Assembly (NCBI GenBank): GCA_031308135.1 | Contig: JAHLJT010004567.1 | Coordinates: 129,465,356 to 129,529,355, forward strand | Origin: Acheta domesticus | Lineage: Eukaryota > Arthropoda > Insecta > Orthoptera > Gryllidae | Reading direction: 5' to 3' | Length of the DNA stretch: 64,000 nucleotides | In this document: positions 11,227 through 41,734 of the stretch, in pieces | How the letters are laid out: each line of letters starts with the position of its first letter | Position numbering within the stretch: position 1 is the first letter of the stretch | The notes under the pieces: model-generated | The model's database searches: none | Seen by the model: only the letters and a program-made list of their open reading frames with translations | What the model was told of the DNA's origin: nothing | Position numbers and translations under genes: made by a program

Positions 11227-11235
11227 CCAGACGTT
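11227..11235 (+). repeat. Left 9-bp target-site duplication (CCAGACGTT)
   Basis: Identical to 41726-41734 and directly abutting the outer foldback terminus. A 9-bp duplication is typical of MULE-related foldback elements. Confidence 0.8.
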
Positions 11236-14186
11236 GGCTATGTCAAGCTGGCACAACCACTATAGCGAAATCGCACCAAACCAAATGGAATATTTAGTAC
11301 TCATTCATTACTAATTCATTACCCAAAAATTAAATTTATTACTCTTGTCATTATTGAAAAACATGTGGTTGTGCTGGCGTGACTGTCAAGCTAGCACAAC
11401 CATTTTTAAAAAATTAGCAAAATCGATTAAAACTAATACAAATATTTAGTACTCATTTATTAATAATTTATTACACAAAAATTAAATTTATTACTCTTGC
11501 CATTATTGAAAAACATGTGGTTGTGTTGGCGTGACTGTCAAGCTAGCACAACCATTTTTAAAAAATTAGCAAAATCGATTCAAACTAATACAAATATTTA
11601 GTACTCATTTATTACTAATTTATTACTCAAAAATTAAGTTAATAACTCTCCCCGTTTATGAAAAATAAATTGTTAAACACATCGTAGATATGCAACTCGC
11701 CTGACACCATGCCTAAATTACAAATACAATTATAGAGAGAACCGATGATCCCAATGGAACGAAACCAAAAACATTATTAAATACACATTATATACTACTT
11801 TATTATTACAAAAAATAAACATAATACTGTAGCCGTTTATGAAAAAAATATTGTTAAAATCTGAATCACAGTTATTCAAACATACCAGAAATTCAAATAC
11901 GATTATAGACGGAACCAACGAGCACAATCGAACCAAACCAACCTCATAATTAATCCCACATTACATACTAATTAATTACTCTAAACAGACATTTATTACT
12001 CTTGCAATTAAAGAAGAAAAAAATGTTAAAAAATTAATCATATTCAGCCATGCCAAAAATTCAAATACGATTATAGAGAGAACCAACGAGCACAATCGAA
12101 CCAAACAAAACTCATAATTAAGCCCACATTACATACTAATTAATTACTCTAAACACACACATATTACTCTTGCCATTAAAGAGGAAAAAATTGTTTAAAT
12201 ATGAATCATATTCAGCCCTGCCAGAAATTCAAATACGATTATTGAGAGAACCAACGAGTACAATCGAACCAAATAAATCTCATAATCAAGCCCACATTAC
12301 ATACTAAATAATTACTCGAAACAGACATTTATTACTCTTGCCATTAAAGGAGAAAAAATTGTTAAAAAATTAATCATATTCAAACATGGCAGAAACTCAA
12401 ATACGATTATAGAGAGAACCAACAGGCACAATCGAACCAAACCAATCTCATAATTAAGCCCCTATTACATACTAATTAATTACTCGAAACACACATTTAT
12501 TACTCTTGCCATTAAAGAAGAAAAAATTGTTTAAATATGAATCATATTCAGCCATGCCAGAAATTCAAATACGATTATAGAGAGAACCAGATAGCACATT
12601 CGAACCAAACCAATCTCATAATTAAGCACACATTGCATACTAATTAATTACTCTAAACAGACATTTATTACTCTTGCCATTATAGAAGAAAAAATTGTGT
12701 AAATATGAATCATATTCAGCCATGCCAGAAATAAAAATACGATTATTGAGAGAACCAACGAGTACAATCGAACCAATTATATCTCATAATCAAGCCCACA
12801 TTACATACTAATTAATTACTCTAAACAGACATTTATTACTCTTGCCATTAAAGAAGAAAAAATTTTTTAAATATGAATCATATTCAGCCATGCCAGAAAT
12901 TCAAATACGATTATAGAGAGAACCAGATAGCACATTCGAACCAAACCAATCTCATAATTAAGCACACATTGCATACTAATTAATTACTCTAAACAGACAT
13001 TTATTACTCTTGCCATTAAAGAAGAAAAAATTGTGTAAATATGAATCATATTCAGCCATGCCAGAAATAAAAATACGATTATTGAGAGAACCAACGAGTA
13101 CAATCGAACCAATTATATCTCATAATCAAGCCCACATTACATACTAATTAATTACTCTAAACAGACATTTATTACTCTTGCCATTAAAGAAGAAAAAAAT
13201 TTTTAAATATGAATCATATTCAGCCATGCCAGAAATTCAAATACGATTATTGAGAGAACTAAGGAGCACAATCGAACCAAACCAATCTCATAATTAACCC
13301 CACATTACATACTAATTAATTACTCTAAACAGACATTTATTACTCTTGCCATTAAAGAAGAAAAAATTGTTAAAAAATGAATCATATTCAACCATGCCGG
13401 AAATTCAAATACGATTATAGACAGAACCAACGAGCATAATCTAACCAAACCAAACTCATAATTAAGCCCACATTATTGGTTCTCTCAATAATCGTATTTG
13501 AATTTCTGGCATGGTTGAATATGATTCATTTTTTAACAATTTTTTCTTCTTTAATGGCAAGAGTAATAAATGTCTGTTTAGAGTAATTAATTAGTATGTA
13601 ATGTGGGCTTAATTATGAGATTGGTTTGGTTCGACTGTGCTCGCTGGTTCTCCCTATAATCGTATTTGAATTTCTGTCATGGCCTAATATGATTAATTTT
13701 TTAACAATTTTTTCTTCTTTAATGGCAAGAGTGATAAATGTCTGTTTCGAGTAATTAATTAGTATGTAATGTGGGATTAATTATGAGGTTGGTTTGGTTC
13801 GATTGTGCTCGTTGGTTCTGTCTATAATCGTATTTGAATTTCTGGTATGTTAGAATAACTGTGATTCAGATTTTAACAATATTTTTTTCATAAACGGCTA
13901 CAGTATTATGTTTATTTTTTGGAATAATAAAGTAGTATATAATGTGTATTTAATAATGTTTTTGGTTTCGTTCCATTGTGATCATCGGTTCTCTCTATAA
14001 TTGTATTTGTAATTTAGGCATGGTGTCAGGCGGGTTGCATATCTACGATGTGTTTAACAATTTATTTTTCATAAACGGGGAGAGTAACTTAATTTTTGGG
14101 TAATAAATTAGTAATAAATGAGTACTAAATATTCCATTTGGTTTGGTGCGATTGTGCTCTAGTGGTTGGGCCAGCTTGACATAGCC
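11236..14186. mobile_element. Left foldback module
   Basis: Two head-to-head arms. The plus arm (11236 to about 13473) starts with two about 150-bp units containing 'GTCAAGCTAGCACAACC', then tandem units of about 166 bp ('TTTATTACTCTTGCCATTAA', 'AAATTCAAATACGATTAT'). At about 13474 the same units continue in reverse orientation to the inner terminus at 14186 (CCAGCTTGACATAGCC). There is almost no loop between the arms. No open frame of note. Structure matches foldback transposons such as Drosophila FB or Galileo, whose long inverted repeats contain internal tandem repeats. Confidence 0.8.
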
Positions 14187-14800
14187 GGGATTTTAGCGGG
14201 AAATGGAATCAGAGTGGCGGGTCTTGATCGTCCGCACCTGGCAACACTGGCTGCAACCAAGATGATGTTCGAGAAAAGATTATTAATGCAGTTTCTAGCA
14301 GGTCTGAGAGAGGAAATAGGTCGGTTCGTTTCGGTGCGTAATCCAAACACAATGCTAGAAGCAGTAGCGTTTGCAAAACAAGAAGAAGCGATTGCTAGGA
14401 ATTATGCATCTGCGACACGAATAGTCAACTCGCTGAACTCTCTTGGCGGCAACCCCTCTGCAAGAGTACGCACAGTGGGCAACAATGCCGCAATCGGCGG
14501 TACAAAATTCTTTTTATGCGCCCAACTCGCCGTAAGGGTATACGCAACAGGCAATACCGCCACAACCGTCTGTGCCGGAGCAGAGTTCCGCCTTTCCCTC
14601 TTATGGTAATATAAGAGAGGGCAACCGAGATTCCTCATCGGCATTGCCGTTCGGTGCAGGTTCCGAGTTCTTTGCCATTCAGCATCCACCCCGAGGTCGG
14701 AGCCCGGGATTCGCACAGTAACCACCGCCACCTCCTCGACAATCACTCGCAGCGAGAGTGTGCTATCATTGCGGAAAACCAGGCCATTTTTCAAATTGTA
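14187..14800 (+). pseudogene. LTR-retrotransposon gag fragment (left copy)
   Basis: Begins at the foldback boundary without its own start. Residues such as MMFEKRLLMQFLAGL and FVSVRNPNTMLEAV fit the C-terminal capsid region of Ty3/gypsy-type Gag. The frame then shifts and has a TAA in the proline-rich stretch, after which a CCHC zinc knuckle (VCYHCGKPGHFSNC) is encoded near 14757-14796. The knuckle is where the nested insert begins. The matching downstream zinc knuckles and protease are at 21935-22214, over 7 kb away. Gag packages element RNA in particles; this copy cannot make a full protein. Confidence 0.75.
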
Positions 14801-15592
14801 TTATTTTTCAAATAGCTGCCGACGTTTTTCGTACATACCCCCACCATGCCTCCAACACCGGAGTTGAGTCTCCTCCTTGTAGACTTCGTGCACACAACGC
14901 TGTCTCAAACGAACATCGATGTCGGCCATCTTACAAACTTCTGCTGTGCTGCCACCTGTTGACGCAGAAAGTTACTACTGCAGTGGATTGCAGGTTTGAG
15001 GAATGGCGCCAAATTCAAATTTTTCACTTAACTTAATTTTTTTAAGTAGAAAAAAAATAGAAAGCATTACTTTTTGACTGACCTACGTAATTGTAACTAA
15101 CACAAGTGGTGCTGCGGAATACCACAGACATTTCGCACTATTAAATACGTATGTAATATGCAAGAAAGTAAAAATCTAACGCAGAAACAATGAACCTAAA
15201 TTTTGTTTTAGTATTATGTACTTAATGTTTATATTAATTATGTAATAATTACATAAAAAATGATTTTATAATAATTATGTTCAAGTATTATATATTGCGG
15301 ATCTTACACTACTGCGCATTACTTTCGAAAAACAATGACTAATAAAGTAAAAGTTTTCTAAATGTTCGAAGTGATACATGAAATGGTATAATACTAGTGT
15401 AAATGATTTTTACGAACTAAAAGCAATACACGTAATAACAATAAACCAATATTCAATGTTTTCAATTGGCCGTAGGGCTGACAAATGTAGTTATTAAATT
15501 AATTCGATAAAACAATCGAATGCAACATGCAGTAAATTATTTCCCCTTCAACTAGTTTAACTCGTTAATATAACTCAAAATATTTCACTCAC
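14801..15592. other. Arm segment, no recognised gene (left); mirrored at 33566-34357
   Basis: Includes at 15062-15081 the inverse of GGTCAGTCAAAAAGTAATGC, a phrase that resembles mariner inverted termini; the partner terminus was not found. Otherwise AT-rich with no supported open frame. Confidence 0.4.
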
Positions 15593-15681
15593 CTTCCCGG
15601 TTCGGAGGGAAATCTGAAGAAACGTATTTCTCTTCTCTGCCGAATAGCGTTGGCACAGCCTGGAACCCAGCATTTCGCCAT
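15593..15681 (-). pseudogene. THAP-domain first exon (left copy)
   Basis: Mirror of 33477-33565. Encodes MAKCWVPGCANAI... and ends at a GTGAGT donor. See the right-arm copy for detail. Confidence 0.65.
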
Positions 15682-16289
15682 CGATATTTTCCAAATTTTA
15701 TTCAAAGTTCGCCAAACCAAATAACGCGCCCAAACAATATGACACAAGAAACACGTGATTTGCCCCCTTCTCCATTCTCCATCCCCACTAGTGGAGAGGG
15801 CAGTGCCTTGCCACGAGTTTAGGGGGCGTTGCCCCAGGTCGGGAACGTGTTTTCATGGAAAAGATGAATGGTAGAAGGTTCATAATCTCGTACCGCTACC
15901 TAACGAGCAAATTACCGAAGCAGCGTTTGAAATTACGCATGTACCTTAAAATAGATGTCGCCACATGGAAACGATGCTAGCGAAACCTTTAGTCCATACT
16001 CTCAAACAGCGAGAGTTTCCCCTCCTCTTATATATTCCTCCATGACAAAACCATAAACTTGAAATAATCGTCAAGTAATGTGACATATATACATCCTAAG
16101 GCTTAAAATTTAGATGGAATAAAGTAGCCAATGTTGGCTGAATTTTAACAATCAGTTTTTCACAGTTGACAACTTCCTAATCTTATCATATTTTATAAAG
16201 TTGTCATTTTTTATTTTAATGTAATTATTCTGTAAAATGTTTGTTGACACTTTCACTATATATGTCTCTAGATTTCATTTATAGCATGA
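15682..16289. other. Arm segment with promoter-like TATA stretch, mirrored at 32869-33476
   Basis: On the minus strand it precedes the THAP exon and contains a TATATAAGAGG-type sequence about 350 bp upstream of the ATG. No other feature recognised. Confidence 0.35.
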
Positions 16290-16530
16290 ACATTAAAACT
16301 TAATTCTATTAGAAAGAAAATTGTGCTGTGTAAGTGCTTTTTCATTGAAATTAATAACATCTCTTTGATGTTGAGTTTGCAAAAATGCCATTTCATTTTC
16401 AACAGATGCCAATTTCGGCACAGTAATATAATTTAAAATAATTACATTTACATCAGGCTGAGGATATAATAATCCACCCGTGTCTCTATTTTTCATTAAA
16501 TCAAATTTTAAAGTACTTTCAACTTCAAAT
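16290..16530 (-). pseudogene. P-element-like transposase C-terminal fragment (left copy)
   Basis: Mirror of 32628-32868. The open frame includes TGGLLYPQPDV, resembling the (R)GGLxYP motif near the C terminus of P/THAP9 transposases. Short and without flanking domains, so this is a weak assignment. Confidence 0.45.
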
Positions 16531-16765
16531 AATTTGTCTCATAATAGATGACTTCGACAAACTCCACATTTGATTTACTTCATCACACTGGCACAATATC
16601 CCCCTAAGTGTATTACTGGCAAGTACAGTGGGTAGACAACGAATTAGGAATTTCCGTAAGTTCTTATATTTTAAAGCTTTATGTCAGTTTGTATATTAGT
16701 TACAAATCTCTTACTATAATTAAAAAGTATTAACTAATGTACTTATTTTCACATTACTTTTGCAA

Positions 16766-17241
16766 TCTAATACTTGGTGGCACCACCTTTTGCTTTAATA
16801 ACAGCCGCAACGCGTCTTGGCGTGCTGTTGATACTCCGTGCCACAGATTCAGTAATAGCTGCATCCTGTTGCCATACTCGTTCCAGACGCTGTTTAAGTT
16901 AAGGAATATTAGTGCATGTTGAACCAATGACCTTGTTCTTCATAATATTCCATATTCCTTCTATGGGATTTAGGTCTGGGCTGTCCCCTGGCCAGGCCAA
17001 CAGTTGATGCTCAATTGCTGCAGATGACTCATGATAAATTTTGTTAGTATAGGGTACCCCATCCTGCATGAAGATACCATCCTTTTTTTGGATACCACTC
17101 GCTCATTTTGAGGAATTAGACAAGTATCTAGGACGAGTTTGTAATGTTCCTTCCTGATAGTACCGTCATCAAAATACAATGGTCCAGCGCCATGCACCAT
17201 GCGCCATGCATAGATATCACACTCCACACCATAAGTTTACC
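16766..17241 (-). pseudogene. Tc1-like transposase C-terminal relic (left copy)
   Basis: Mirror of 31917-32392; carries the same stops and frame breaks. See the right-arm copy. Confidence 0.8.
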
Positions 17242-19335
17242 GGGATATTTAACAGTTTCCTTGACCATAGCCCGCTAGTATGCCTAACAGCCGCGGCACT
17301 TCGCCAATCCTTATGGAAGCCAGCGAACGGACGAAGTTCACATTGTGGCCGCTGGAGCGCTGGTCGCCGACCATTCGCGAGACCTTCGGGCCGTTTTAAT
17401 GCATAGGGAAATGCCCGCGTTTCGGACGATTTTGGTCACTTACTGTGATATGAGACATTATAAACTCGTGTTGGTGGTAATATTAAACAATACTGAAATT
17501 ATATTTCACTGTGCCGTTTGCTTAAAAGAAATTGTGGAGTGAATGATGTCTTTAAGGTTTTTAAAGACAAGGGATGCAAACGAAAAAAATAGAAAACTAT
17601 TATTTTATCAGTTTTATACTATGTTTATATTTTCAAACTGTATTATTCTTCAATCTATATTACACGCTCAAAAAAGTAAAAATTCAAAATACAAGTATTC
17701 GGGAAAATAATCGCTAAATAACAGGGAGAAACTAGTTCTAAAACGGACGACGGGCGCTGTTGTAAATAATACTCAGGGAAGTTCACTCAAAAAAAGTACT
17801 CCAAATCACTATTGCCCTGGTAAAAACGTTCTCACCTAGAGATAGTCATAAAATTACTTTCGACTAGCGAAATTCATATTGGCGCTCTCATGGAGGTACA
17901 AGAAAAAGCTAGACATTTTCAATAAGAGCAACTAAAGTACAATGTAGACATTATTTCTAATTCTTTGCGTAGTCCGCTTCCAAATTCCACAACAATGATA
18001 GAACAATAAATCAAACATCAGAAATAAAAATCAACAAACAGACATCTCGTGATATCCAATGACGTTTGTGAGAAAATGTGTCACTTTTTGATTGACAAGT
18101 GTTACAATACGAGAAATATCCAAAACTGTCTCAAACGATCATTCCCAGTACATGGAGCCAGTATGTTTATATTGAACGTAAACAAAATTGTTTGTGCTAT
18201 TTGTGAGTGTTTTTTCAAGATTTGTATCGAATTTTGAGAATAAACTGAATTGTTAGGTTGCCGTAGGGTCAATCCATTTTAAGTGGTCCAGAATTTAATA
18301 AATTGGTCGCTCGGCCATCTCGAAAAAAATTCATATTTTGTACATAAATTTCCTTATGTTTTGGCTGTTCAAAACCATCTTTAACTTTTTTTATTGTACC
18401 TGGTTTACAAATGGCGGCCATTTTTGTTTCCCGCCGTGCGCCATTTTTCGCGTTCGCAGACATTTACTCGTTCCTAAATTGCTCAGCTCTCGATTGTTCT
18501 AGCACTCTAGAATAAAAAGCATTCGATTCAGCATACTTTGGCCTGCAAATCGAAATATTATTTATCTATTTACTATGTTTTTATTTGGGCAATATTTGTA
18601 ACAAAATCTAAGGAACGCGAATGAACGAAATTCGATATTCAGAGAGTAATTCCTCAAAGAAGGAATAGAATCTAAGCCTTAATTTTTTCTGTGCTTTTAC
18701 ACACAACAGTATAGTTACTTTTTGTAAAATATCATTGGTATATAACGTACCCCTTGAAAATTGCATCCTCTTGAAAATTGGAATTTTGGATTTTTTCCCA
18801 ATTTTGAACTGTAATATCTCAGTTGGGGGACCAGATAAAAATCTGAAAATTGCACACATGCTAGACCGCTATCATACCAAACTTCAGTAAAAATTACAAC
18901 TTTTAGATTTAACTCGAAGTATTTTTAAAAAAATTGAAAACTTACGAAAAAAAGGCTTCATTTCCCCATTGAGGTTACATTGTGCCAAGTAGTAAACACA
19001 TTATTTTGAAGCTATTTTAAACTAAAATCTACATTGATTTAAAATAATTAATTATACTTAATAATTAATGTACATAAAAGTGGCCTAATATATAATTTGC
19101 ATTATTACGTATATTTTTCTCCAAAACAAACTTACAATTTGACATCTACGTCCGTAATTGAAAAATGGTTATCTTGATTTTGAAATCTGAACCGCTTAAA
19201 ACAAAAAGTATTTATAAAATACAACAAATAAATAAATTCAGCGTTTTGTTTATGTTTTTGCGTTTAAATTTGCCATTTATTCATGCTTGAATGTACGTAT
19301 GATCATACTATACGTAGAATCATACGATAAAAACT
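17242..19335. other. Arm segment without recognised gene, mirrored at 29823-31916
   Basis: About 2.1 kb of AT-rich sequence. Several 60-85-codon open frames exist on both strands and are duplicated in the mirror copy, but none shows a known domain. Near 18400-18440 (minus strand) there are 'ATGGCCGCCATTTG' and 'ATGGCGCACGGCGGG' stretches of unknown meaning. Confidence 0.4.
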
Positions 19336-20067
19336 ATGGCGTTGTTGAATTTACGAGCACCGAAAAACTTCCGCCCTCCCATTATTACATCTGAAATTGA
19401 TTACCGGGAGTTATTTAGATGTGATAAGGAAAATGTGGAGTGGTTAGCAAACCACTTCCGTGGCGAATCTACGGAGACGAACGTGCAAAGACTGGAAATT
19501 TTCCTTCGTTTTGTAAGTGATCCAGGTTTTCAAATTGGATCACTTACAAATCGCACAGGAAAAGATATTGCTGTTCATCGTTCCACAGTATCAAAGACTA
19601 TTCAAAACTATTGTAAACCAAAAAATAAATGACAAGTCCCATATTTGGATAAAATTTCCAAAACGCAATAATGTTAATATTGCACAGGCAGAATGGGTTC
19701 AGCGTTTCAACTTTCCTAGCGCAATTGGCGCCATAGACTGTACTCACGTACGAATAATGAAACCGTCTACACATGGAGATGAATACCTCAACCGCGAGGG
19801 ATTTATGTCCATTAATGTTCAGCCACTTGTAATTATAAGGAAGAGTTTACTAGTATAGATGCCCAGGGGTCAGCTTTGTTCATGATAAGAGAATTCTAAA
19901 ACGAAGCAAGCTCTATGGCGTAATGAATCGCCAACGAAGTGATGCTGTTCTGCTAGGGGACAGCGGATATGGCATTACTTCTTGGCTACAAACTCCATTC
20001 AGAGATCCACGAACGCCACAAGAACGTGCTTATAATTATCTGTTAAAAAAAGAAAGACCCGGGCGAC
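19336..20067 (+). pseudogene. PIF/Harbinger (HARBI1-like) transposase relic (left copy)
   Basis: Harbinger transposases cut and paste DNA using a DDE nuclease. Here an N-terminal helical segment (19336-19630, MALLNLRAPKNFRPP...) is followed, after a frame break, by the DDE_Tnp_4 signature AIDCTHVRI and YLNREGFMSINVQ (about 19720-19830), then another frame break and LLGDSGY...WLQTPF (about 19950-20000) carrying the second catalytic Asp. The sequence ends at RERPGRP-like residues before the third acidic residue region, beside a poly-G tract. Two frame breaks and loss of the end make it inactive. Identical in the mirror at 29091-29822. Confidence 0.85.
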
Positions 20068-20935
20068 CCACATCGCCTGTAAACAGCCGCGGGGGGGGGG
20101 GGGGGAACTTCGGAGACCCGACTGAGTACTGTACTATTCAATACAAATTACATGTAATACATATGAACAAAATACATGTAGTGTAAGCTCTTAAATACAC
20201 AGATAACCAAAAAATGAATAAAACGGTACCACAACAAAAGACATAAAAAACAAAATAATTGAGGAAAGGCATGACACATTAAAAAACACTGGACAAGAAG
20301 GCATAATTCGTAGATATGTACAACAGTCACTTAAAAAAGGGCAAAAATATGTAGCATAAAGAGATGCAACATGAAATAGACACCTAAAGAGGCATAACAC
20401 TTGACAGAATAAAAGAAACGAATCTACTTATGACATAAAACAATATTCTTTGGCTTGCGTTTGTTTTGCAGATCTTGCATTAGTTCATGAGTCTATTAGT
20501 CCTTTTGATTTCAACTACTATTTTATTTACATTTTGCGTCACTTTCTTCTTGTACTTACAATTCACTATCACACAATAACTTTTGCACTTAAGTTTTCAG
20601 CATAACAATATTTTCTTGTACGTTCGCAACACAAAACTAATAACTATTTACGGCTTCAACACATACACAAGGAGGCCTTTGCTTTCCCTTAGCGCCAGGT
20701 CCTCGATTATTGCCTTGGTAAAGCCACATGGATTAGGCGAAGGTTCTGTTAAACTGCGGGTGGTTCTGTCCGTTGCTTTGTCGTTTGCGGCTTCAGCGGT
20801 GTTTGGCGGTCGGTCAGCCATCATCCGTCAGTCATACACGCGCGCCTCCGGCTGGGGACGCAGACCGTGCGCGTATGACGGCAGGTCCATATCGCACGCG
20901 GTGGGCATCTCATCTGCCGGCGCATTCCTGTTGCC
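20068..20935. other. Arm segment with poly-G tract, mirrored at 28226-29090
   Basis: A 15-base G run at 20091-20105 separates the Harbinger relic from AT-rich sequence. From about 20690 the composition turns GC-rich and leads into the repeat-bearing ORF on the minus strand. Overlapping open frames of 155 and 213 codons on the plus strand are shadows of that GC-rich stretch. Confidence 0.45.
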
Positions 20936-21910
20936 CTACGATAGTGACTGCTTGCCCCACAGGCAGGGCCTGCGCTCGAACCCAGGAGTGCCCGGCACAA
21001 GCAACGGGAAGTTCATCTCGCATGTGGCGGCCAGCATCTCGCCCGCCAGCACGTTCGCGTCGCCCGTCACCAATAGCAGCAAGTCACGTAGGCAGCATTT
21101 GCGCTCGAACCGAGAAGTGTCCACGACGCGGTCAGGGCTCCACCGCCGGGACCTTCTCGCGCCTTCCACACACCAGCAAGTGGGCAGGATCGAATTCGGC
21201 TGCAGATTCTGCGGAGGCGAGTAGGCCAGGAGGCTCGTGATGAGCGTTGGCCTCACAGTATGTTGGGCCAGACACTCGGTCATGCCTCGCTGCTCCTCCG
21301 CCGCAACGCCGGCCTCCGGCTCCAGCAGCGACGACAATCGCGCCAATTCGCCACTTTGGAAAGTAGTAGGAAGTTTTGGATACCATCTAGGATCTGAGAC
21401 ACTGGACTGAGATGCAGCTGCATGAGGCACAATTGAAGCAAGTCCTTCTTTTGAGTCAGAAGTTACACTATGCAAAATACTGGATACGTCAACACGTTCT
21501 AATGTATCAATTTCTTTCTTTTTGAATCCCGGAATTTTGGAATTGGTAAGCAGCGCTGCGCGAGGATCAATTTTTATATTATTGGTCTTAAGTGTTCTAC
21601 AAGGGGCAACTACGGGAGAATCCTCAACCTCATTTGACACCTCTACTAAATTTATTAAAACATTGGAAATCTTCTCATTAGGCGTACAGGCACATTTACC
21701 CTCTGTCCCGCCCACGTTCATCTTTCTAACCGGAAACACATGAGCTTCCCCTTCGGGCATACAAGCGCATTTCTCTTCTGTCCCGCCTGCGTTCATCTTA
21801 CTAGCGCGAAAAACGTGAGTTTCCCCTTCGGGCATACAAGCGCGTTTCCCCGCTGTCCCGCCCGCGTTCATCTTACTAGCTCGAAAAACGTGGGTTTCCC
21901 CTTCGGGCAT
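20936..21910 (-). CDS. ORF of unknown function with 25-residue repeats (left copy)
   Basis: Mirror of 27251-28225 on the plus strand, 324 codons here because the upstream repeat units are missing at the spacer edge (21930). One visible residue difference from the right copy (FPVRKMN against FQVRKMN). See the right-arm copy for the description. Confidence 0.45.
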   Translation of the reverse strand: MPEGETHVFRASKMNAGGTAGKRACMPEGETHVFRASKMNAGGTEEKCACMPEGEAHVFPVRKMNVGGTEGKCACTPNEKISNVLINLVEVSNEVEDSPVVAPCRTLKTNNIKIDPRAALLTNSKIPGFKKKEIDTLERVDVSSILHSVTSDSKEGLASIVPHAAASQSSVSDPRWYPKLPTTFQSGELARLSSLLEPEAGVAAEEQRGMTECLAQHTVRPTLITSLLAYSPPQNLQPNSILPTCWCVEGARRSRRWSPDRVVDTSRFERKCCLRDLLLLVTGDANVLAGEMLAATCEMNFPLLVPGTPGFERRPCLWGKQSLS

Positions 21911-21930
21911 ACAAGCGCGTATCTCCGCTG
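21690..21930 (-). repeat. 75-bp tandem repeat array (left copy)
   Basis: Three or so head-to-tail units of about 75 bp, each encoding a variant of ACMPEGETHVFRASKMNAGG. The unit sequence 'CGCGCTTGTATGCCCGAAGG' (minus strand) recurs in the spacer and right arm. Confidence 0.85.
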
Positions 21931-21934
21931 AAAG

Positions 21935-22214
21935 TGTTGTAACTGCGGGCAGTCAGACCACAACATACTGAAATGCCCATTGATAATACGTAGTAAATGT
22001 AAAGAATCCGGCCACAGTACGGTAGACTGTCAAAAACAGGACGTGAATTTCGGAAACTGATAAATCCCGATCACGAGGTCTGGGATGAAGTATTAGCCGT
22101 TACCCCGTCGGAGGGCATGACAATTAGTGTAGGTATTTTAGGACGTCAGCACCAATTTCTGGTCGACACAGGAGCTGCGGTTACTTTATGCGATTCCAAA
22201 ATTTTTCGAAACGG
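21935..22214 (+). pseudogene. Retrotransposon zinc knuckles and aspartic protease fragment
   Basis: Single-copy segment between the arms. A perfect CCHC box (CNCGQSDHNILKC, 21938-21976) is followed by a second (KCKESGHSTVDC) in which the first Cys codon reads CGT. After a frame change comes FLVDTGAAVTLCDS with the catalytic DTG at 22165-22173, the signature of a retropepsin that matures Gag-Pol. It ends near 22214 by running into the 75-bp repeat. With the knuckle at 14757 this continues the gag fragment split by the insert. The mirror side lacks this piece. Confidence 0.8.
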
Positions 22215-22305
22215 ATACGCGCTTGTACGCCCGAAGAGGAAACTCACGTTTTTCGCGCTAGTAAGATGAATGCGGGCGGGACAGCGGAGATACGCGCTTG
22301 TACGC
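22215..22305 (+). repeat. 75-bp repeat unit, plus orientation, left of P-like element
   Basis: One unit and a fraction, in the orientation of the right-arm array, separated from that array (27108 onward) by the P-like element. Removing the P-like element would join the two into one array. Confidence 0.75.
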
Positions 22306-31916: not shown

Positions 31917-32392
31917 GGTAAACTTATGGTGTGGAGTGTGATATCTATGCATGGCGCATGGTGCATGGCGCTGGACCATTGTATTTTGATGACGGTACTA
32001 TCAGGAAGGAACATTACAAACTCGTCCTAGATACTTGTCTAATTCCTCAAAATGAGCGAGTGGTATCCAAAAAAAGGATGGTATCTTCATGCAGGATGGG
32101 GTACCCTATACTAACAAAATTTATCATGAGTCATCTGCAGCAATTGAGCATCAACTGTTGGCCTGGCCAGGGGACAGCCCAGACCTAAATCCCATAGAAG
32201 GAATATGGAATATTATGAAGAACAAGGTCATTGGTTCAACATGCACTAATATTCCTTAACTTAAACAGCGTCTGGAACGAGTATGGCAACAGGATGCAGC
32301 TATTACTGAATCTGTGGCACGGAGTATCAACAGCACGCCAAGACGCGTTGCGGCTGTTATTAAAGCAAAAGGTGGTGCCACCAAGTATTAGA
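31917..32392 (+). pseudogene. Tc1-like transposase C-terminal relic (right copy)
   Basis: Tc1/mariner transposases are DDE enzymes that insert at TA. This fragment starts with a VWSVISMHG-like segment before a frame break and then encodes FMQDGVPYTNKIYH (second catalytic Asp codon 32095-32097) and AWPGDSPDLNPIEGIWN (catalytic Glu codon 32197-32199), about 34 residues apart as expected for the DD34E group. An in-frame TAA follows NIP, after which LKQRLERVWQQ... continues to RVAAVIKAKGGATKY and a stop at 32390-32392. The N-terminal DNA-binding part is missing. Same lesions in the mirror copy at 16766-17241. Confidence 0.85.
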
Positions 32393-32627
32393 TTGCAAAA
32401 GTAATGTGAAAATAAGTACATTAGTTAATACTTTTTAATTATAGTAAGAGATTTGTAACTAATATACAAACTGACATAAAGCTTTAAAATATAAGAACTT
32501 ACGGAAATTCCTAATTCGTTGTCTACCCACTGTACTTGCCAGTAATACACTTAGGGGGATATTGTGCCAGTGTGATGAAGTAAATCAAATGTGGAGTTTG
32601 TCGAAGTCATCTATTATGAGACAAATT

Positions 32628-32868
32628 ATTTGAAGTTGAAAGTACTTTAAAATTTGATTTAATGAAAAATAGAGACACGGGTGGATTATTATATCCTCAG
32701 CCTGATGTAAATGTAATTATTTTAAATTATATTACTGTGCCGAAATTGGCATCTGTTGAAAATGAAATGGCATTTTTGCAAACTCAACATCAAAGAGATG
32801 TTATTAATTTCAATGAAAAAGCACTTACACAGCACAATTTTCATTCTAATAGAATTAAGTTGTAATGT
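32628..32868 (+). pseudogene. P-element-like transposase C-terminal fragment (right copy)
   Basis: Open frame LFEVESTLKFDLMKNRDTGG... with TGGLLYPQPDV and VENEMAFLQTQ, ending at a stop near 32865. The GGLxYP motif resembles the end of P/THAP9 transposases. It lies 600 bp upstream of a THAP first exon on the same strand, the wrong order for one gene, so the two are separate remnants. Assignment rests on a short motif. Confidence 0.45.
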
Positions 32869-33476
32869 TCATGCTATAAATGAAATCTAGAGACATATAT
32901 AGTGAAAGTGTCAACAAACATTTTACAGAATAATTACATTAAAATAAAAAATGACAACTTTATAAAATATGATATGATTAGGAAGTTGTCAACTGTGAAA
33001 AACTGATTGTTAAAATTCAGCCAACATTGGCTACTTTATTCCATCTAAATTTTAAGCCTTAGGATGTATATATGTCACATTACTTGACGATTATTTCAAG
33101 TTTATGGTTTTGTCATGGAGGAATATATAAGAGGAGGGGAAACTCTCGCTGTTTGAGAGTATGGACTAAAGGTTTCGCTAGCATCGTTTCCATGTGGCGA
33201 CATCTATTTTAAGGTACATGCGTAATTTCAAACGCTGCTTCGGTAATTTGCTCGTTAGGTAGCGGTACGAGATTATGAACCTTCTACCATTCATCTTTTC
33301 CATGAAAACACGTTCCCGACCTGGGGCAACGCCCCCTAAACTCGTGGCAAGGCACTGCCCTCTCCACTAGTGGGGATGGAGAATGGAGAAGGGGGCAAAT
33401 CACGTGTTTCTTGTGTCATATTGTTTGGGCGCGTTATTTGGTTTGGCGAACTTTGAATAAAATTTGGAAAATATCG
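32869..33476. other. Arm segment upstream of THAP exon (mirror of 15682-16289)
   Basis: Non-coding. TATATAAGAGG at about 33125 could be a TATA box for the exon at 33477 but the distance (about 350 bp) leaves room for a 5' UTR or intron. No other feature seen. Confidence 0.35.
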
Positions 33477-33565
33477 ATGGCGAAATGCTGGGTTCCAGGC
33501 TGTGCCAACGCTATTCGGCAGAGAAGAGAAATACGTTTCTTCAGATTTCCCTCCGAACCGGGAAG
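33477..33565 (+). pseudogene. THAP-domain first exon (right copy)
   Basis: ATG at 33477 encodes MAKCWVPGCANAIRQRRE... with C4 and C9 of the C2CH zinc site, then FFRFPSEPG, the usual FP-containing stretch, and stops at a GTGAGT donor at 33566. Start, zinc residues and donor are all intact, so this looks like a real first exon of a THAP gene or THAP-bearing transposase. No second exon (with the CxxH half and AVPTIF box) was found downstream within the arm. It is therefore treated as an orphan exon. Different in sequence from the THAP exon of the central P-like element. Confidence 0.7.
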
Positions 33566-34357
33566 GTGAGTGAAATATTTTGAGTTATATTAACAAGTTA
33601 AACTAGTTGAAGGGGAAATAATTTACTGCATGTTGCATTCGATTGTTTTATCGAATTAATTTAATAACTACATTTGTCAGCCCTACGGCCAATTGAAAAC
33701 ATTGAATATTGGTTTATTGTTATTACGTGTATTGCTTTTAGTTCGTAAAAATCATTTACACTAGTATTATACCATTTCATGTATCACTTCGAACATTTAG
33801 AAAACTTTTACTTTATTAGTCATTGTTTTTCGAAAGTAATGCGCAGTAGTGTAAGATCCGCAATATATAATACTTGAACATAATTATTATAAAATCATTT
33901 TTTATGTAATTATTACATAATTAATATAAACATTAAGTACATAATACTAAAACAAAATTTAGGTTCATTGTTTCTGCGTTAGATTTTTACTTTCTTGCAT
34001 ATTACATACGTATTTAATAGTGCGAAATGTCTGTGGTATTCCGCAGCACCACTTGTGTTAGTTACAATTACGTAGGTCAGTCAAAAAGTAATGCTTTCTA
34101 TTTTTTTTCTACTTAAAAAAATTAAGTTAAGTGAAAAATTTGAATTTGGCGCCATTCCTCAAACCTGCAATCCACTGCAGTAGTAACTTTCTGCGTCAAC
34201 AGGAGGCAGCACAGCAGAAGTTTGTAAGATGGCCGACATCGATGTTCGTTTGAGACAGCGTTGTATGCACGAAGTCTACAAGGAGGAGACTCAACTCCGG
34301 TGTTGGAGGCATGGTGGGGGTATGTACGAAAAACGTCGGCAGCTATTTGAAAAATAA
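33566..34357. other. Arm segment, no recognised gene (mirror of 14801-15592)
   Basis: Contains GGTCAGTCAAAAAGTAATGC at 34077-34096, resembling a mariner terminus. Otherwise nothing supported. Confidence 0.4.
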
Positions 34358-34971
34358 TACAATTTGAAAAATGGCCTGGTTTTCCGCAATGATAGCACAC
34401 TCTCGCTGCGAGTGATTGTCGAGGAGGTGGCGGTGGTTACTGTGCGAATCCCGGGCTCCGACCTCGGGGTGGATGCTGAATGGCAAAGAACTCGGAACCT
34501 GCACCGAACGGCAATGCCGATGAGGAATCTCGGTTGCCCTCTCTTATATTACCATAAGAGGGAAAGGCGGAACTCTGCTCCGGCACAGACGGTTGTGGCG
34601 GTATTGCCTGTTGCGTATACCCTTACGGCGAGTTGGGCGCATAAAAAGAATTTTGTACCGCCGATTGCGGCATTGTTGCCCACTGTGCGTACTCTTGCAG
34701 AGGGGTTGCCGCCAAGAGAGTTCAGCGAGTTGACTATTCGTGTCGCAGATGCATAATTCCTAGCAATCGCTTCTTCTTGTTTTGCAAACGCTACTGCTTC
34801 TAGCATTGTGTTTGGATTACGCACCGAAACGAACCGACCTATTTCCTCTCTCAGACCTGCTAGAAACTGCATTAATAATCTTTTCTCGAACATCATCTTG
34901 GTTGCAGCCAGTGTTGCCAGGTGCGGACGATCAAGACCCGCCACTCTGATTCCATTTCCCGCTAAAATCCC
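34358..34971 (-). pseudogene. LTR-retrotransposon gag fragment (right copy)
   Basis: Mirror of 14187-14800, with the same truncation at the foldback boundary, same frame shift and stop, and the same zinc knuckle (CYHCGKPGH, near 34362-34402). No zinc-knuckle or protease continuation exists on this side. The long open frame at 34364-34756 on the plus strand is a shadow. Confidence 0.75.
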
Positions 34972-36489
34972 GGCTATGTCAAGCTGGCCCAACCACTAGA
35001 GCACAATCGCACCAAACCAAATGGAATATTTAGTACTCATTTATTACTAATTTATTACCCAAAAATTAAGTTACTCTCCCCGTTTATGAAAAATAAATTG
35101 TTAAACACATCGTAGATATGCAACCCGCCTGACACCATGCCTAAATTACAAATACAATTATAGAGAGAACCGATGATCACAATGGAACGAAACCAAAAAC
35201 ATTATTAAATACACATTATATACTACTTTATTATTCCAAAAAATAAACATAATACTGTAGCCGTTTATGAAAAAAATATTGTTAAAATCTGAATCACAGT
35301 TATTCTAACATACCAGAAATTCAAATACGATTATAGACAGAACCAACGAGCACAATCGAACCAAACCAACCTCATAATTAATCCCACATTACATACTAAT
35401 TAATTACTCGAAACAGACATTTATTACTCTTGCCATTAAAGGAGAAAAAATTGTTATATAATTAATCATATTCAACCATGGCAGAAACTCAAATACGATT
35501 ATAGAGAGAACCAGCAGGCACGATCGAACCAAACCAATCTCATAATTAAGCCCACATTACATACTAGTTAATTTCTCCAAATACACATTTATTACTCTTG
35601 CCATTAAAGAAGAAAAAATTGATTAAATATGAATCATATTCAGCCATGCCAGAAATTCAAATACGATTATAGAGAGAACCAGAAAGCACAATCGAACCAA
35701 ACCAATCTCATAATTAAGCACACATTGCATACTAATTAATTACTCTAAAAAGATATTTATTACTCTTCCCATTAAAGAAGAAAAAATTGTTTAAATATGA
35801 ATCATATTCAGCCATGCCAGAAATTCAAATACGATTATTGAGAAAAACAACGAGCACAATTGAACAAAAAAGAGATCATAATTAAGCCCACATTACATAC
35901 TAACTAATTACTTGAAACAGACATTTATTACTCGTGCCATTAAAGAAGAAAAATTGTTAAATTATTAATCATATTCAACCATGGCAGAAACTCAAATACG
36001 ATTATAGAGAGAACCAGCAGGCACAATCGAACCAAACCAATCTCATAATTAAGCCCCTATTACATACTAACTAATTATTTGAAACAGACATTTATTACTC
36101 TTGCCATTAAAGAAGAAAAAATTGTTAAAAAAATAATCATATTCAACCATGCAAGAAACTCAAATACGATTATAGAGAGAACCAACGAGCACAATCGAAT
36201 CAAACCAATTTCATAATTAAGCCCTCATTACATACTAATTAATTACTTTAAACACACATTTATTATTCTTGCCATTAAAGAAGAAAAAATTTTTAAATAT
36301 GAATTATATTCAACCATGCCAAAATTTCAAATACGATTATAGAGAGAACCAACGAGCACAATCGAACCAAACCAAGATCGTAATGAAATGCACATTATTT
36401 ACTAATTTATTATTCTAAACAAACATTTATTACTGTTGCCGTGTATTAAGATATTTTTATTGTTAATTTTTAAATACTGCATAACTATG

Positions 36490-38098
36490 CAACCATGCTT
36501 TCAAAATTACCTTCGTATGGAATCCGTGGTATTGCTCTAGATTGGCTATGTTCGTACCTTAAACAACGATCTCATAGAGTAGAAATACTGGAATGATGGA
36601 ACTTTATGTACACACCTTTCCGGTTCTTTGCCAATTGTATGTGGAGTTCCGCAAGGATCGTTTTTAGGCCCTATTCTCTTCCTATTATATGTAAATGACA
36701 TGCCCTTAGTGATTCGAAACGGAAGAACAGTTCTCTTTGCGGATGATACAAATATTCTTTGCAACAAAGAAACCGTAAATAGTACAATATCAGACGTTTC
36801 AAATTGGTTCCGTAATAACAAATTAAAAGTAAATGAAAATAAAACAGTTTCAATGCAGTTTTCCATATCAAATAAAAAATTCTGTTCTCCATTGAAAATG
36901 AACGGTGTGCCATTGACTGATGTTAATGTAACAAAATTTTTAGGTCTATCAATTCAGTCAAACCTCAAATGGAATGCCCACTTAAATGAATTGAACACAA
37001 AATTAAGCTCATTATGCTACGCGTTCAGAATTCTTTCAAATTCCGTCAGCCTTCATACAGCTCGTTGTGTATATTTTGCCAATGTTCTCTCCCGCCTGAG
37101 ATATGGCATAATATTTTGGGCAAACACATCTTATAGTTCACAGACTTTCAGATTACAAAAAAGAATTGTACGAATAATAAGCAAATCCAACCCACGTGAT
37201 TCTTGTAAGTCACTCTTTATTAATCTAGGAATTTTACCATTACCTTGTCTCCTGATTTACGAATCAGTAGTTTTTGTCAAAAATGACTTACTTAAGGACG
37301 GGAATATATTTTCAGCAAACGCCGATGTCTATAAGTATAACACACGACGTAGTAATCATATTCACCAGGTGGCAGTATCAACAGCTCACTACAAAAAATT
37401 CACATACAATTCATGTACATTACTCTACAACACTTTGCCAGAAGACATTAAACGATTAAATTCAATAGAAAAGTTTAAGTCCCAAGTAAAATCTTTTCTG
37501 CTGCATAACTGTTTCTATTCAATTCGAGACTATACCGAGCATCAAAAAGGAAAGTAGAATTAATTTTAACAATGATAGTTAATGTAATTATTTATCATTT
37601 GGACTGTATAATTCTAAAGAACCTGTAACAAGTATTGTACCAGTTTCTGGGTTGATGGCCCCCATCTCGATCAGGTTTTTCGTCCAGTTTCCCTAATCCT
37701 TGAGCAAATGCTGAGATTGTCCCTTGTTTTGCTTCTGGACATAAATGTAACTTCATTATTTGTGCACGTCTTCTGAATTTCAGTGGGAAATGTAGTTATT
37801 CAAATTATCGTTTTTCATATTATCGCGGCAAAAAGTATTATTCTTTCATGAAGAACATGAGGGTTCAGGGCAGAAATTTATAGCTAATTTACCTTTGAAA
37901 ATATATTTTATTATATAGGAGCGAATATTTTGTCAACAAAAATTGAAAAAAACCTCTCTTTTCTGTATTCAAAATTCCTGTAAAATATGGTTTAGGATAG
38001 AGACCACAGAATTATGAAAACGTGCACAAAATTCACTTCTCCCCATAGCTCGTCATACGCAGTTTTTAACTGTTTTTGACGTAAATAAATAAATAAAT
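36490..38098 (+). mobile_element. 5'-truncated LINE in the foldback loop
   Basis: Homology starts around 36490 (LPSYGIRGIALDWLCSYL, the segment before the RT active site), has one frame break near 36590, and continues in the open frame at 36628-37557. A (TAAA)n run at about 38084-38097 is a typical LINE 3' end. A LINE copies its RNA into a nicked target and often leaves such 5'-truncated copies. Confidence 0.8.
36601..37557 (+). CDS. LINE reverse transcriptase, C-terminal part (CR1/Jockey-like)
   Basis: 309 codons open from 36628. Blocks in order: PIVCGVPQGSFLGPILFLLYVND (RT motif with GVPQGS), VLFADDTNI with the catalytic Asp pair at about residues 39-41, WFRNNKLKVNENKT, TKFLGLSIQ, then the thumb and a C-terminal domain ending in YNTRRSNHIH ... 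YNTLPEDIK ... FKSQVKSFL, characteristic of CR1/Jockey-type ORF2. The endonuclease and the first RT motifs are missing, so it is not functional, yet this frame has no stop, suggesting a recent insertion compared with the other relics here. Confidence 0.9.
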   Translation, partial: TLCTHLSGSLPIVCGVPQGSFLGPILFLLYVNDMPLVIRNGRTVLFADDTNILCNKETVNSTISDVSNWFRNNKLKVNENKTVSMQFSISNKKFCSPLKMNGVPLTDVNVTKFLGLSIQSNLKWNAHLNELNTKLSSLCYAFRILSNSVSLHTARCVYFANVLSRLRYGIIFWANTSYSSQTFRLQKRIVRIISKSNPRDSCKSLFINLGILPLPCLLIYESVVFVKNDLLKDGNIFSANADVYKYNTRRSNHIHQVAVSTAHYKKFTYNSCTLLYNTLPEDIKRLNSIEKFKSQVKSFLLHNCFYSIRDYTEHQKGK

Positions 38099-39182
38099 GA
38101 AATATCATTCATATTACTGCAACACGCAATTCATTATGTAAGTTAAGTTTGAAATTTGACCGAGAGAAAAACAGTGAATATATCTGAAAGTTAGTTCGTT
38201 TTAATGTATCATAATATTCATTCAATAATTTTTACTTACTACTACAATAAAATAATTTATTCTCAACCATTTTATGAAATTCAAATTGAGATTTTTTGTA
38301 GAAAAATAGACGTACAACAAAATTATTTATTAGTGAATTTTTAAAATTTTAGTGCAAAATTAATTATGAGTAATTACCTAGTCTTATTGTAATACATTAA
38401 TAATCAAAACATACAATGGTTGGTATAGATACTCACTATAGTTAAACACACTCTAAGACTTAAGTCCGATGTTAAGTCTGAAGTGAAAATAGATGAGAAA
38501 ATCAAGTCCCTTTTTAATTATAATTATCAACATTTTGCATAAATGGCTAAAAAAATTCTAATGCAATGGTAGTAAAAGTACTCATTCATTCTAACTAAAA
38601 AAATGTTGCAAGCATTTAAAATATTAATAAATACTTTTGTTAAAATTCATTGAAATACAAATTTTTTTATTACAGAACTGAATAAACCAATTTATTTTAT
38701 TGGGCCAGAATCCTACATCCCTGAAAAAAATTGTCTAAATAGAGGATACAAAACAGGGTCTCTCCCAGGGATTCAAACAGGATCGACGGAATTTTGAAGG
38801 GTGTCAGTGCCGATCGTGGGGCCCCTTTGGCACGTTGAATATAGTTAAGAGCATTTATTTTTGTGTGTCACATATCGAATTCTCTAATGACTCCATATTT
38901 AAAAAATATCAATAAACGGCAACAGCAATATATTTCTATTAAGAATGATAAATTAGAATTCAAATTGCAATTAATTATCCATTTAGTTTAGGATGATTAT
39001 GCCCCTTATTATTCACCGATCAAGTTCTGGCATGTTTGGAAAATAATTATTTTGTTTTTAACAATATGGAAATATTAATAAAATTATCTCTGTAGAAATT
39101 AATATTGAATGAGTATTTACTCAACAATTACGTTTTAGTTATTCCTTCCCCTTCCTTATCTACAATTAATACTCAAGGCTCA
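38099..39182. other. Rest of foldback loop, no recognised feature
   Basis: AT-rich sequence between the LINE tail and the right arm. Contains a short GC-richer part at about 38740-38850 that I cannot assign. Confidence 0.4.
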
Positions 39183-41725
39183 AGCATGGTTGCATAGTTA
39201 TGCAGTATTTAAAAATTAACAAAAAAAATATCTTAATACACGGCAACAGTAGTAAATGTGTGTTTAGAATAATAAATTAGTAAATAATGTGCATTTCATT
39301 ACGATCTTGGTTTGGTTAGATTGTGCTCGTTGGTTCTCTCTATAATCGTATTTGAATTTCTGGCATGGTTGAATATGATTCATATTTAAACAATTTTTTC
39401 TTCTTTAATGGCAAGAGTAATAAATGTCTGTTTAGAGTAATTATTTAGTATGTAATGTGGGATTAATTAGGAGATTGGTTTGGTTCGATTGTGCTTTCTG
39501 GTTCTCTCTATAATTGTGTTTGAATTTCTGGCATGGCTGAATATGATTCATATTTAAACAATTTTTTCTTCTTTAATGGCAAGAGTAATAATTGTCTGTT
39601 TTGAGTAATTAATTAGCATGTAATGTGGGATTATTTATGAGATTGGTTTGGTTCGATTGTGCTTTCTGGTTCTCTCTATAATTGTGTTTGAATTTCTGGC
39701 ATGGCTGAATATGATTAATTTTTTAACAATTTTTTCTTCTTTAATGGCAAGAGTAATAAATGTCTGTTTAGAGTAATTATTTAGTATGTAATGTGGGCTT
39801 AATTATGAGATTGGTTTGGTTTGATTGTGCTCCTTAGTTCTCTCAATAATCGTATTTGAATTTCTGGCATGGCTGAATATGATTCATATTTAAAAATGTT
39901 TTTCTTCTTTAATGGCAAGAGTAATAAATGTCTGTTTAGAGTAATTAATTAGTAAGTAATGTGGACTTAATTATGAGATTGGTTTGGTTTGCTTGTGCTC
40001 GTTGATTCTCTCAATAATCGTATTTGAATTTCTGGCATGGCTGAATATGATTCATATTTAAAAAATTTTTTCTTCTTTAATGGCAAGAGTAATAAATGTC
40101 TGATTAGAGTAAATAATTAGTATGTAATGTGGGCTTGATTATGAGATTGATTTGGTTCGATTGTGCTCGTTGGTTCTCTCAATAATCGTATTTGAATTTC
40201 TGGCATGGTTGCATATGATTAATTTTTTAACAATTTTTTCTTCTTTAATGGCAAGAGTAATAAATGTCTGTTTAGAGTAATTAATTAGTATGCAATGTGT
40301 GCTTAATTATGAGATTGGTTTGGTTCGATTGTGCACGCTGGTTCTCTCTATAATCGTATTTGAATTTCTGGCATGGCTGAATATGATTCATATTTAAACA
40401 ATTTTTTCTTCTTTAATGGCAAGAGTAATAAATGTGTGTTTAGAGTAATTAATTAGTATGTAATGTGTGCTTAATTATGAGATTGGTTTGGTTCGATTGT
40501 GCCTGCTGGTTCTCTCTATAATCGTATTTGAGTTTCTGCCATGGTTGAATATGATTAATTTTTTAACAATTTTTTCTCCTTTAATGGCAAGAGTAATAAA
40601 TGTCTGTTTCAAGTAATTATTTAGTATGTAATGTGGGCTTGATTATGAGATATATTTGGTTCGATTGTACTCGTTGGTTCTCTCAATAATCGTATTTGAA
40701 TTTCTGGCATGGCTGAATATGATTCATATTTAAACAATTTTTTCTTCTTTAATGGCAAGAGTAATAAATGTCTGTTTCAAGTAATTATTTAGTATGTAAT
40801 GTGTGCTTAATTATGAGATTGATTTGGTTCGATTGTGCTCGCTGGTTCTCTCTATAATCGTATTTGAATTTCTGGCATGGCTGAATATGATTCAGATTTA
40901 ATCAATTTTTTCTTCTTTAATGGCAAGAGTAATAAATGTCTGTTTAGAGTAATTAATTAGTATGTAATGTGGGCTTAATTATGAGGTTGGTTTGGTTCGA
41001 TTGTGCTCGCTGGTTCTCTCTATAATCGTATTTGAATTTCTGGCATGGCTGAATATGATTCAGATTTAAACAATTTTTTCTTCTTTAATGGCAAGAGTAA
41101 TAAATGTCTGTTTAGAGTAATTAATTAGTATGTAATGTGGGCTTAATTATGAGATTGGTTTGGTTCGATTGTGCTCGCTGGTTCTCTCTATAATCGTATT
41201 TGAATTTCTGGCATGGTTGAATATGATTCATTTTTTAACAATTTTTTCTTCTTTAATGGCAAGAGTAATAAATGTCTGTTTAGAGTAATTAATTAGTATG
41301 TAATGTGGGATTAATTATGAGATTAGTTTGGTTCGATTGTGCTTGTTGGTTCTGTCTATAATCGTATTTGAATTTCTGGTATGTTTGAATAACTGTGATT
41401 CAGATTTTGACAATATTTTTTTCATAAACGGCAACAGTATTATGTTTATATTTTTGGAATAATAAAGTAGTATATAATGTGTATTTAATAATGTTGTTGG
41501 TTTCGTTCCATTGTGATCATAGGTTCTCTCTATAATTGTATTTTTAATTTAGGCATGGTGTCAGGCGGGTTGCATATCTACGATGTGTTTAACAATTTTT
41601 TTTTCATAAACGGGGAGAGTAATTAATTTAATTTTTGGGTAATAAATTAGTAATAAATGAGTACAAAATATTCCATTTGGTTTGGTGCGATTGTGCTATA
41701 GTGGTTGTGCCAGCTTGACGTAGCC

Positions 41726-41734
41726 CCAGACGTT
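41726..41734 (+). repeat. Right 9-bp target-site duplication (CCAGACGTT)
   Basis: Identical to 11227-11235 and immediately after the outer foldback terminus. Confidence 0.8.

What the first reader, a model, noticed from the sequence alone, without database searches (positions are those of the whole stretch)
11227..41734. 30.5 kb compound foldback transposon with a single 9-bp target duplication
Seen: the outermost termini at 11236 and 41725 are inverse copies (GGCTAYGTCAAGCTGGC...) and are directly flanked by CCAGACGTT on both sides, while the two inner termini (14186, 34972) have unrelated flanks. Removing the block restores one uninterrupted host sequence. Known: MULE-related foldback elements make 9-bp duplications, and pairs of Drosophila FB elements can mobilise large DNA between them. 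Inference: this is a very large FB-bracketed unit carrying an 8 kb palindrome and relics of at least five other transposon types. If it moved as a unit, it would be a natural large-cargo transposon.
Basis: partly seen in the sequence, partly recalled or inferred. Interest (0 to 1): 0.9.

Follow-up and report, generated by a model that had tools for sequence, protein, structure and literature searches.

The report
Foldback-ended block around a palindrome
In what looks like an insect genome, a 30 kb patchwork of dead transposons built around a near-perfect 8 kb mirror repeat sits between two foldback transposon ends that share one 9-base target duplication; it is either a foldback element that filled up after landing or a rare case of a large block moved by foldback ends.

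Summary
The window has four foldback (FB) termini (11236, 14186, 34972, 41725), and only the two outermost are flanked by the same 9-mer, CCAGACGTT. I add three facts. (1) The two inner flanks are one retrotransposon gag junction in inverse copies. (2) The near-identical palindrome is 13734-21930 / 35424-27231: 8 substitutions and one 3-base length difference in about 8.2 kb. It ends inside the FB arms, 453 bp from the inner termini; beyond that the arms differ at 24 of 257 sites. (3) The two outermost arms share a collinear order of 168-bp units (2 of 3000 shuffles as good); pairs with the right FB's inner arm do not, but that test is weaker.

I lean towards one FB that inserted with the 9-bp duplication and was filled later by template switching or FB-FB recombination, a giant "Pack-TIR". 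Movement of the whole block as a unit is not excluded, nor is an assembly error through the FB arrays. The own-genome search did not complete (19 of 19 tries), so empty site, copy number and donor locus are untested. The kind is known; the size and the palindromic filling are unusual.

The parts
11227..11235 (+). left copy of the 9-bp target duplication CCAGACGTT
   Evidence: 9 of 9 identical to 41726-41734
11236..13475 (+). arm A1 of the left FB: terminus GGCTATG, 2.4 copies of a 152-bp sub-terminal repeat, then an array of 168-bp units
13476..14186 (-). arm A2 of the left FB, inverse; 13734-14186 is identical to 34972-35424 (453 of 453), 13477-13733 differs from 35425-35681 at 24 of 257 sites
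13734..21930 (+). left palindrome arm (FB arm end, gag fragment, nested transposon relics, 75-bp array)
   Evidence: 8 substitutions and one 3-base length difference against 35424-27231
14187..14815 (+). LTR-retrotransposon gag fragment directly abutting the FB terminus; right edge approximate, read from the sequence
   Evidence: zf-CCHC E 1.2e-4 on 14722-15033; Ty3_capsid E 0.0032, below Pfam's cut-off
16902..17102 (-). DDE_3 transposase relic (also in the other arm)
   Evidence: PF13358 E 5.6e-7
19854..20183 (+). DDE_Tnp_4 transposase relic (also in the other arm)
   Evidence: PF13359 E 6.9e-7
21681..21918 (-). 75-bp tandem array at the inner end of the left palindrome arm
21931..27230 (+). 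5,300-bp palindrome spacer: gag-protease piece, 75-bp repeats in the opposite orientation, P/THAP9-like transposase relic (about 23.8-26.1 kb)
   Evidence: TNP-like_GBD E 9.1e-44, THAP9_C E 2e-8, Tnp_P_element E 1.3e-6; gag-asp_proteas E 0.0085, below cut-off
27231..35424 (-). right palindrome arm
   Evidence: inverse copy of 13734-21930
34972..36508 (+). arm B1 of the right FB (inner arm), inner end approximate
36509..39181 (+). loop of the right FB with a non-LTR reverse transcriptase fragment at 36583-37554
   Evidence: RVT_1 E 2.1e-14; relatives up to 98% identity over 72% of the query
39182..41725 (-). arm B2 of the right FB (outer arm), array of 168-bp units, terminus GGCTACG
41726..41734 (+). 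right copy of the 9-bp target duplication CCAGACGTT
   Evidence: 9 of 9 identical to 11227-11235

Best explanation
One foldback element, whose arms are now the outermost ones (A1 and B2), inserted into host DNA and made the 9-bp duplication. Its long inverse arrays of 168-bp repeats later broke or stalled replication. Repair copied in DNA from another locus where an FB sat inside a retrotransposon gag: out from the FB arm through gag and a nest of dead transposons, back again after a switch between inverted 75-bp arrays, which gives the palindrome, and closure within FB repeats. The block is then a giant Pack-TIR made in place and not a unit that moved. Shown: termini, duplication, palindrome, mosaic edge, unit order. 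Inferred: the order of events, the break, the turn-back and the donor locus.
For: Both inner termini abut the same gag base in inverse orientation, so they are copies of one FB/gag junction. Identity between the inner arms drops from 453 of 453 to 233 of 257 at 13733/13734, inside the FB repeats (Fisher p 1e-11). The outer arms A1 and B2 share unit order (2 of 3000 shuffles as good), against 352 of 3000 for A1-B1 and 667 of 3000 for B1-B2; mean best unit identity is 95.8% A1 to B2, 92.7% A1 to B1 and 93.6% B1 to B2. The palindrome edges at 21930 and 27231 lie in 75-bp repeats, and a further copy in the opposite orientation starts near 22213, about 290 bp from the left array. The left FB's arms meet abruptly at 13475/13476 without loop or inner arm ends. 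In PMC8277862 (section 8 and passages) repetitive FB4 arms are linked to template switching, and in 91 of 97 primate Pack-TIRs the transposon without filling stood at the site in outgroups.
Against: The B1 comparisons have only 6 usable units, and 6-unit pieces of A1 against B2 themselves gave 9, 4, 72 and 248 of 2000 shuffles, so failure for B1 is weak evidence. A family-wide unit order would also make A1 and B2 alike. One unit group joins B1 with A1 (support 95), and the groups of the d, e and b types include B1 units. The terminal 450 bp does not favour any pairing. The inner ends of B1 and B2 match at 97% over 78 nt, as two arms of one element would. I see no microhomology at the 13475/13476 join. 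The filling would be about 90 times the published median of 224 bp.
Confidence: 0.45

Rival explanations
1. The block moved as one unit. Transposase used the two outermost FB termini around a palindrome, either by macrotransposition of a pair of FBs or by alternative transposition during replication, in which donor flanks are copied again and the two copied ends fuse; it made one 9-bp duplication at the new site.
For: Outer termini share the duplication and inner termini keep a donor flank, which is the layout of maize composite insertions (PMC4270019, passages and section 8). Donor flanks that are the same sequence inverted fit use of two sister copies of one FB, whose ends are alike. FB-bracketed mobility has been reported (Ising TE, cited in PMC6431247).
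Against: As they stand the two FBs are not sister copies: loop present in one only, unequal arms, 24 of 257 differences next to an identical 453 bp, so later exchange with other FBs must be added. No second copy, donor or empty site could be looked for.
Confidence: 0.33
2. Assembly artefact. A simple FB insertion with its duplication is real, but the assembly path runs through the shared FB arrays and 75-bp arrays into another FB locus, and the palindrome joins two haplotypes or copies of one stretch.
For: All critical joins (13734, 21930, 27231, 35424) lie in tandem arrays. The arms differ by 8 substitutions and a homopolymer length, a level that could be heterozygosity.
Against: No N in 64 kb, and two 8.2 kb arms at 99.9% are kept apart around a 5.3 kb unique spacer, which suggests long reads. 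The sequencing method is not known to me.
Confidence: 0.15
3. An old palindrome kept alike by gene conversion between its arms. The FB differences then show the true age, and the near-identity of gag and relics is recent homogenisation. This adds to either history above and does not by itself explain the duplication.
For: The near-identical stretch covers 8,197 of the 8,454 bp of inverse homology and stops 257 bp short of its end; differences inside it are thinly spread.
Against: One recent copying event gives the same pattern.
Confidence: 0.07

Closest known systems
Pack-TIRs of animals, including Ssk-FB4 (PMC8277862; abstract, section 8 and passages seen)
   Same: Foreign DNA inside a TIR transposon with one target duplication outside; FB4 arms named as repetitive and prone to template switching
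   Different: Median filling 224 bp there; here 20.8 kb between inner termini, mostly transposon relics, in palindromic form; no parental copy found here
Composite insertions of maize Ac/fAc (PMC4270019; passages and section 8 seen)
   Same: Outer termini share a target duplication, inner termini keep donor flanks, the two flanks are joined in the middle; sizes of 19.3 and 23.2 kb given for two alleles
   Different: Known alleles derived from two neighbouring hAT elements with 8-bp duplications and two different flanks; here both flanks are one sequence inverted and the two FBs differ
Ising TE of Drosophila melanogaster (cited in a passage of PMC6431247; the original papers not seen)
   Same: DNA between foldback elements
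   Different: There cytologically visible segments of hundreds of kilobases with observed movement; here no movement shown
Anopheles gambiae 2Rj 14.6 kb module (PMC1952172; passages seen)
   Same: Long arms over 99% identical (5.3 kb there, 8.2 kb here) around a spacer (4 kb there, 5.3 kb here), made of degraded transposon relics
   Different: No FB ends with sub-repeats and no ordinary target duplication there; sits at inversion breakpoints
Galileo of Drosophila (PMC2775673 and PMC4168063; passages seen)
   Same: Long-armed elements, chimeric copies and exchanged target duplications through ectopic recombination
   Different: P superfamily with 7-8 bp duplications; produced chromosomal inversions
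Tetris of Drosophila virilis and Tm1 of Meloidogyne (PMC4079207, PMC3169594; passages seen)
   Same: Foldback elements with tandem repeats in the arms and mostly 8-10 bp duplications
   Different: Other repeat units (about 220 bp; 13-15 bp); single elements, not a block

Membership tests
Foldback-type TIR transposon | long inverse arms built of tandem sub-repeats | tested here: met
   168-bp arrays in inverse arms
Foldback-type TIR transposon | target duplication at both ends of each element | tested here: not met
   left FB alone 1 of 9, right FB alone 2 of 9; only the outer pair of termini gives 9 of 9
Foldback-type TIR transposon | dispersed copies in the genome | not tested
   own-genome search not answered in 19 of 19 tries
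Mutator/MULE superfamily | about 9-bp target duplication | tested here: met
   9 bp; other superfamilies are not excluded by this
Mutator/MULE superfamily | MULE-type transposase | tested here: inconclusive
   none among the 19 open frames given to Pfam (10, 9); a non-autonomous element would lack it
Pack-TIR | foreign sequence between the arms of a TIR element with a shared outer duplication | tested here: met
Pack-TIR | parental copy of the filling elsewhere, and unfilled element at the orthologous site | not tested
   no genome or relative could be searched
Composite insertion by alternative transposition | outer termini share the duplication, inner termini keep donor flanks | tested here: met
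Composite insertion by alternative transposition | as I apply it here (use of two sister FB copies): the two element copies should be alike | tested here: not met
   loop in one FB only, unequal arms, 24 of 257 differences beyond the identical 453 bp
FB-bracketed macrotransposon (Ising type) | FB elements on both sides | tested here: met
FB-bracketed macrotransposon (Ising type) | movement of the whole unit between sites | not tested
   needs empty site or second copy

The most novel reading that the evidence does not exclude
A natural 30.5 kb mobile unit: transposase paired the alike ends of two sister copies of one foldback, inserted them at one site with a 9-bp duplication and dragged in their re-copied flanks, which fused into an 8 kb palindrome; FB arms were reshuffled afterwards. 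This would give a transposition route for palindromic transposon graveyards such as the Anopheles 2Rj module.
Probability: 0.25. Interest if true: 0.75.

Novelty: new variant of a known kind. Interest (0 to 1): 0.5.

Why it matters
If the block moved as a unit, long symmetric FB ends can carry tens of kilobases and can make palindromes on the way. If it filled in place, it is a Pack-TIR with a filling about 90 times the published median of 224 bp, with FB repeats as likely break and switch points. Either way it offers a link between FB elements and large palindromic insertions of transposon relics such as those at an Anopheles inversion. An empty-site test would go far to decide between the two.

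Tried and rejected
Rejected or set aside. (1) Two independent FB insertions around an interval: both inner flanks are the same gag site inverted. (2) An unchanged palindrome of two sister FBs: outside the identical 453 bp the FBs differ too much. (3) Grouping the arms by their terminal 450 bp: only three distinct sequences there and a star-like pattern; the MAFFT alignment also paired A1 at its third sub-terminal copy, so many of the 22 sites private to A1 are an alignment effect. (4) A first split into units missed most of them and was replaced; the matrices are not used. (5) tRNA and Rfam scans found nothing. (6) The terminus pattern gave 0 exact matches in viral contigs and 0 in genome contigs, collections where an animal genome is hardly expected. 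(7) Literature: eight searches of the held open library; I recognised no listed paper as describing this block, but I opened only eight papers, all in part.

Corrections of my own notes: the notebook entry and the script counted one arm difference too many; searches give 8 substitutions and one 3-base length difference.

Rows dropped before counts: the first unit, the innermost unit and partial units were left out (used: 9 of 11 A1, 12 of 14 B2, 6 of 8 B1 units). The random-pair control drew only from the window outside the block.
Full report
Setting. The window looks like insect DNA: the open frame at 60453-61376 has 2 relatives at E up to 1e-3, both from the cricket Gryllus longicercus (best 49% identity over 47%). 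There are no tRNA and no Rfam matches and no N. The species is not known to me.

The observation. Four copies of the FB terminus lie at 11236, 14186, 34972 and 41725. Outside 11236 and 41725 stands CCAGACGTT, 9 of 9; across each FB alone the match is 1 and 2 of 9. Random pairs of positions outside the block match in 29 of 2,000,000 draws. The 12-base direct repeat CCAGACGTTGGC occurs only at these two places in the window; its last three bases are element on the left and host on the right. The block is 30,490 bp: left FB 2,951, right FB 6,754, and 20,785 between the inner termini.

Anatomy of the FBs. The arms are arrays of 168-bp units. The right FB has two arms whose inner ends match at 97% over 78 nt, around a loop with a reverse transcriptase fragment (RVT_1 E 2.1e-14; relatives up to 98% identity over 72% of the query). 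The left FB has no loop and lacks the innermost unit type; as I read the sequence, its arms meet out of phase at 13475/13476. Its outer arm also holds 2.4 copies of a 152-bp sub-terminal repeat.

Anatomy of the palindrome. BLAST shows 13477-21930 against 35681-27231. The differences are uneven: 24 of 257 sites in 13477-13733, 0 of 453 from there to the inner terminus, then 8 substitutions and one 3-base difference in a G run up to 21930 (Fisher p 1e-11 for 24/257 against 0/453). The fresh inverse copy thus starts inside the FB arms. Its cargo includes a gag fragment (zinc knuckle E 1.2e-4), a DDE_3 relic (E 5.6e-7) and a DDE_Tnp_4 relic (E 6.9e-7) (4 of the 9 frames sent had a match, 5 had none) and a 75-bp array. 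The 5,300-bp spacer holds a gag-protease piece (E 0.0085, below Pfam's cut-off), 75-bp repeats in the opposite orientation and a P/THAP9-like relic. That DDE_3 and DDE_Tnp_4 stand for Tc1/mariner-like and PIF/Harbinger-like elements is recalled, not tested.

What the inner junctions say. Both inner FB termini abut the same gag base in inverse orientation. They are copies of one FB insertion in one retroelement. The far side of that insertion is not at any of the four FB termini of the window; I did not search for the missing part of gag in other ways. Two independent FB insertions around an interval are therefore not the simple history, and the palindrome was made with the FB end in it.

Which arms belong together. 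Unit by unit, A1 and B2 share order: score 26.2 against a shuffle mean of 18.3 (s.d. 2.7), reached in 2 of 3000 shuffles. A1-B1 is reached in 352 and B1-B2 in 667 of 3000. The unit tree has A1-B2 groups with support 98, 94 and 84, but also an A1-B1 group with 95, and groups that include B1 with both (96, 89). The B1 tests have less power: 6-unit pieces of A1 against B2 gave 9, 4, 72 and 248 of 2000. The terminal 450 bp does not resolve the arms. I read this as moderate support for A1 and B2 being two arms of one element, or copies of one arm. A family-wide shared order would give the same and could not be tested.

Mechanism. My leading account is a single FB insertion, filled later by template switching from an FB-in-gag locus, with a turn-back between inverted 75-bp arrays making the palindrome (0.45). 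PMC8277862 gives the frame: it links the repetitive FB4 arms to template switching and finds that most single-copy Pack-TIRs were filled after insertion, 91 of 97 in primates. The median filling there is 224 bp, so this would be extreme. The main rival is movement as a unit, best drawn like the maize composite insertions (PMC4270019), at 0.33. Its weak point is that the two FBs as they stand are not sisters. An assembly error through the arrays stands at 0.15, and an old palindrome kept alike by gene conversion at 0.07.

Known or new. DNA between foldbacks moving as a unit is on record (Ising TE, cited in PMC6431247). Palindromic collections of transposon relics are known from Anopheles, without an ordinary duplication (PMC1952172). 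Chimeric FB-like copies with exchanged duplications are known from Galileo (PMC2775673). The combination of FB ends, one 9-bp duplication and a large, nearly identical palindrome is, as far as my eight searches of the open library showed (listed in Tried and rejected; most hits seen only as listings), a new variant.

Limits. The own-genome search did not complete in 19 of 19 tries, so copy number, donor, empty site and family-wide unit order are open. MULE membership is not shown: it rests on the length of the duplication, and no MULE transposase was among the 19 frames scanned.

Noticed in passing
20936-21952 (-) and 27140-28225 (+): The 75-bp array reads through as a 25-residue repeat within long open frames (338 and 361 aa); apart from a weak CopK hit (E 0.051, below cut-off) the first had no Pfam match.
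   Followed up: partly
42272-42533: A 35-bp tandem array, 7.5 copies at 96% match, shortly right of the block.
   Followed up: no
53660-54139 (-): Copia-type gag fragment (Retrotran_gag_2, E 2.6e-8).
   Followed up: no
10391-11037, 538-1149, 46302-46810: A dispersed repeat with copies in the left flank of the block and at other places in the window, 65-73% alike over 500-680 bp.
   Followed up: no
60453-61376 (+): An open frame whose only listed relatives are two uncharacterised proteins of Gryllus longicercus; no Pfam match.
   Followed up: partly
11226-11235 / 41735-41800: The joined host site reads GTTGGCCGCCATGTTGCATGG, which resembles a promoter or 5' end motif; this is recalled, not tested.
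   Followed up: no
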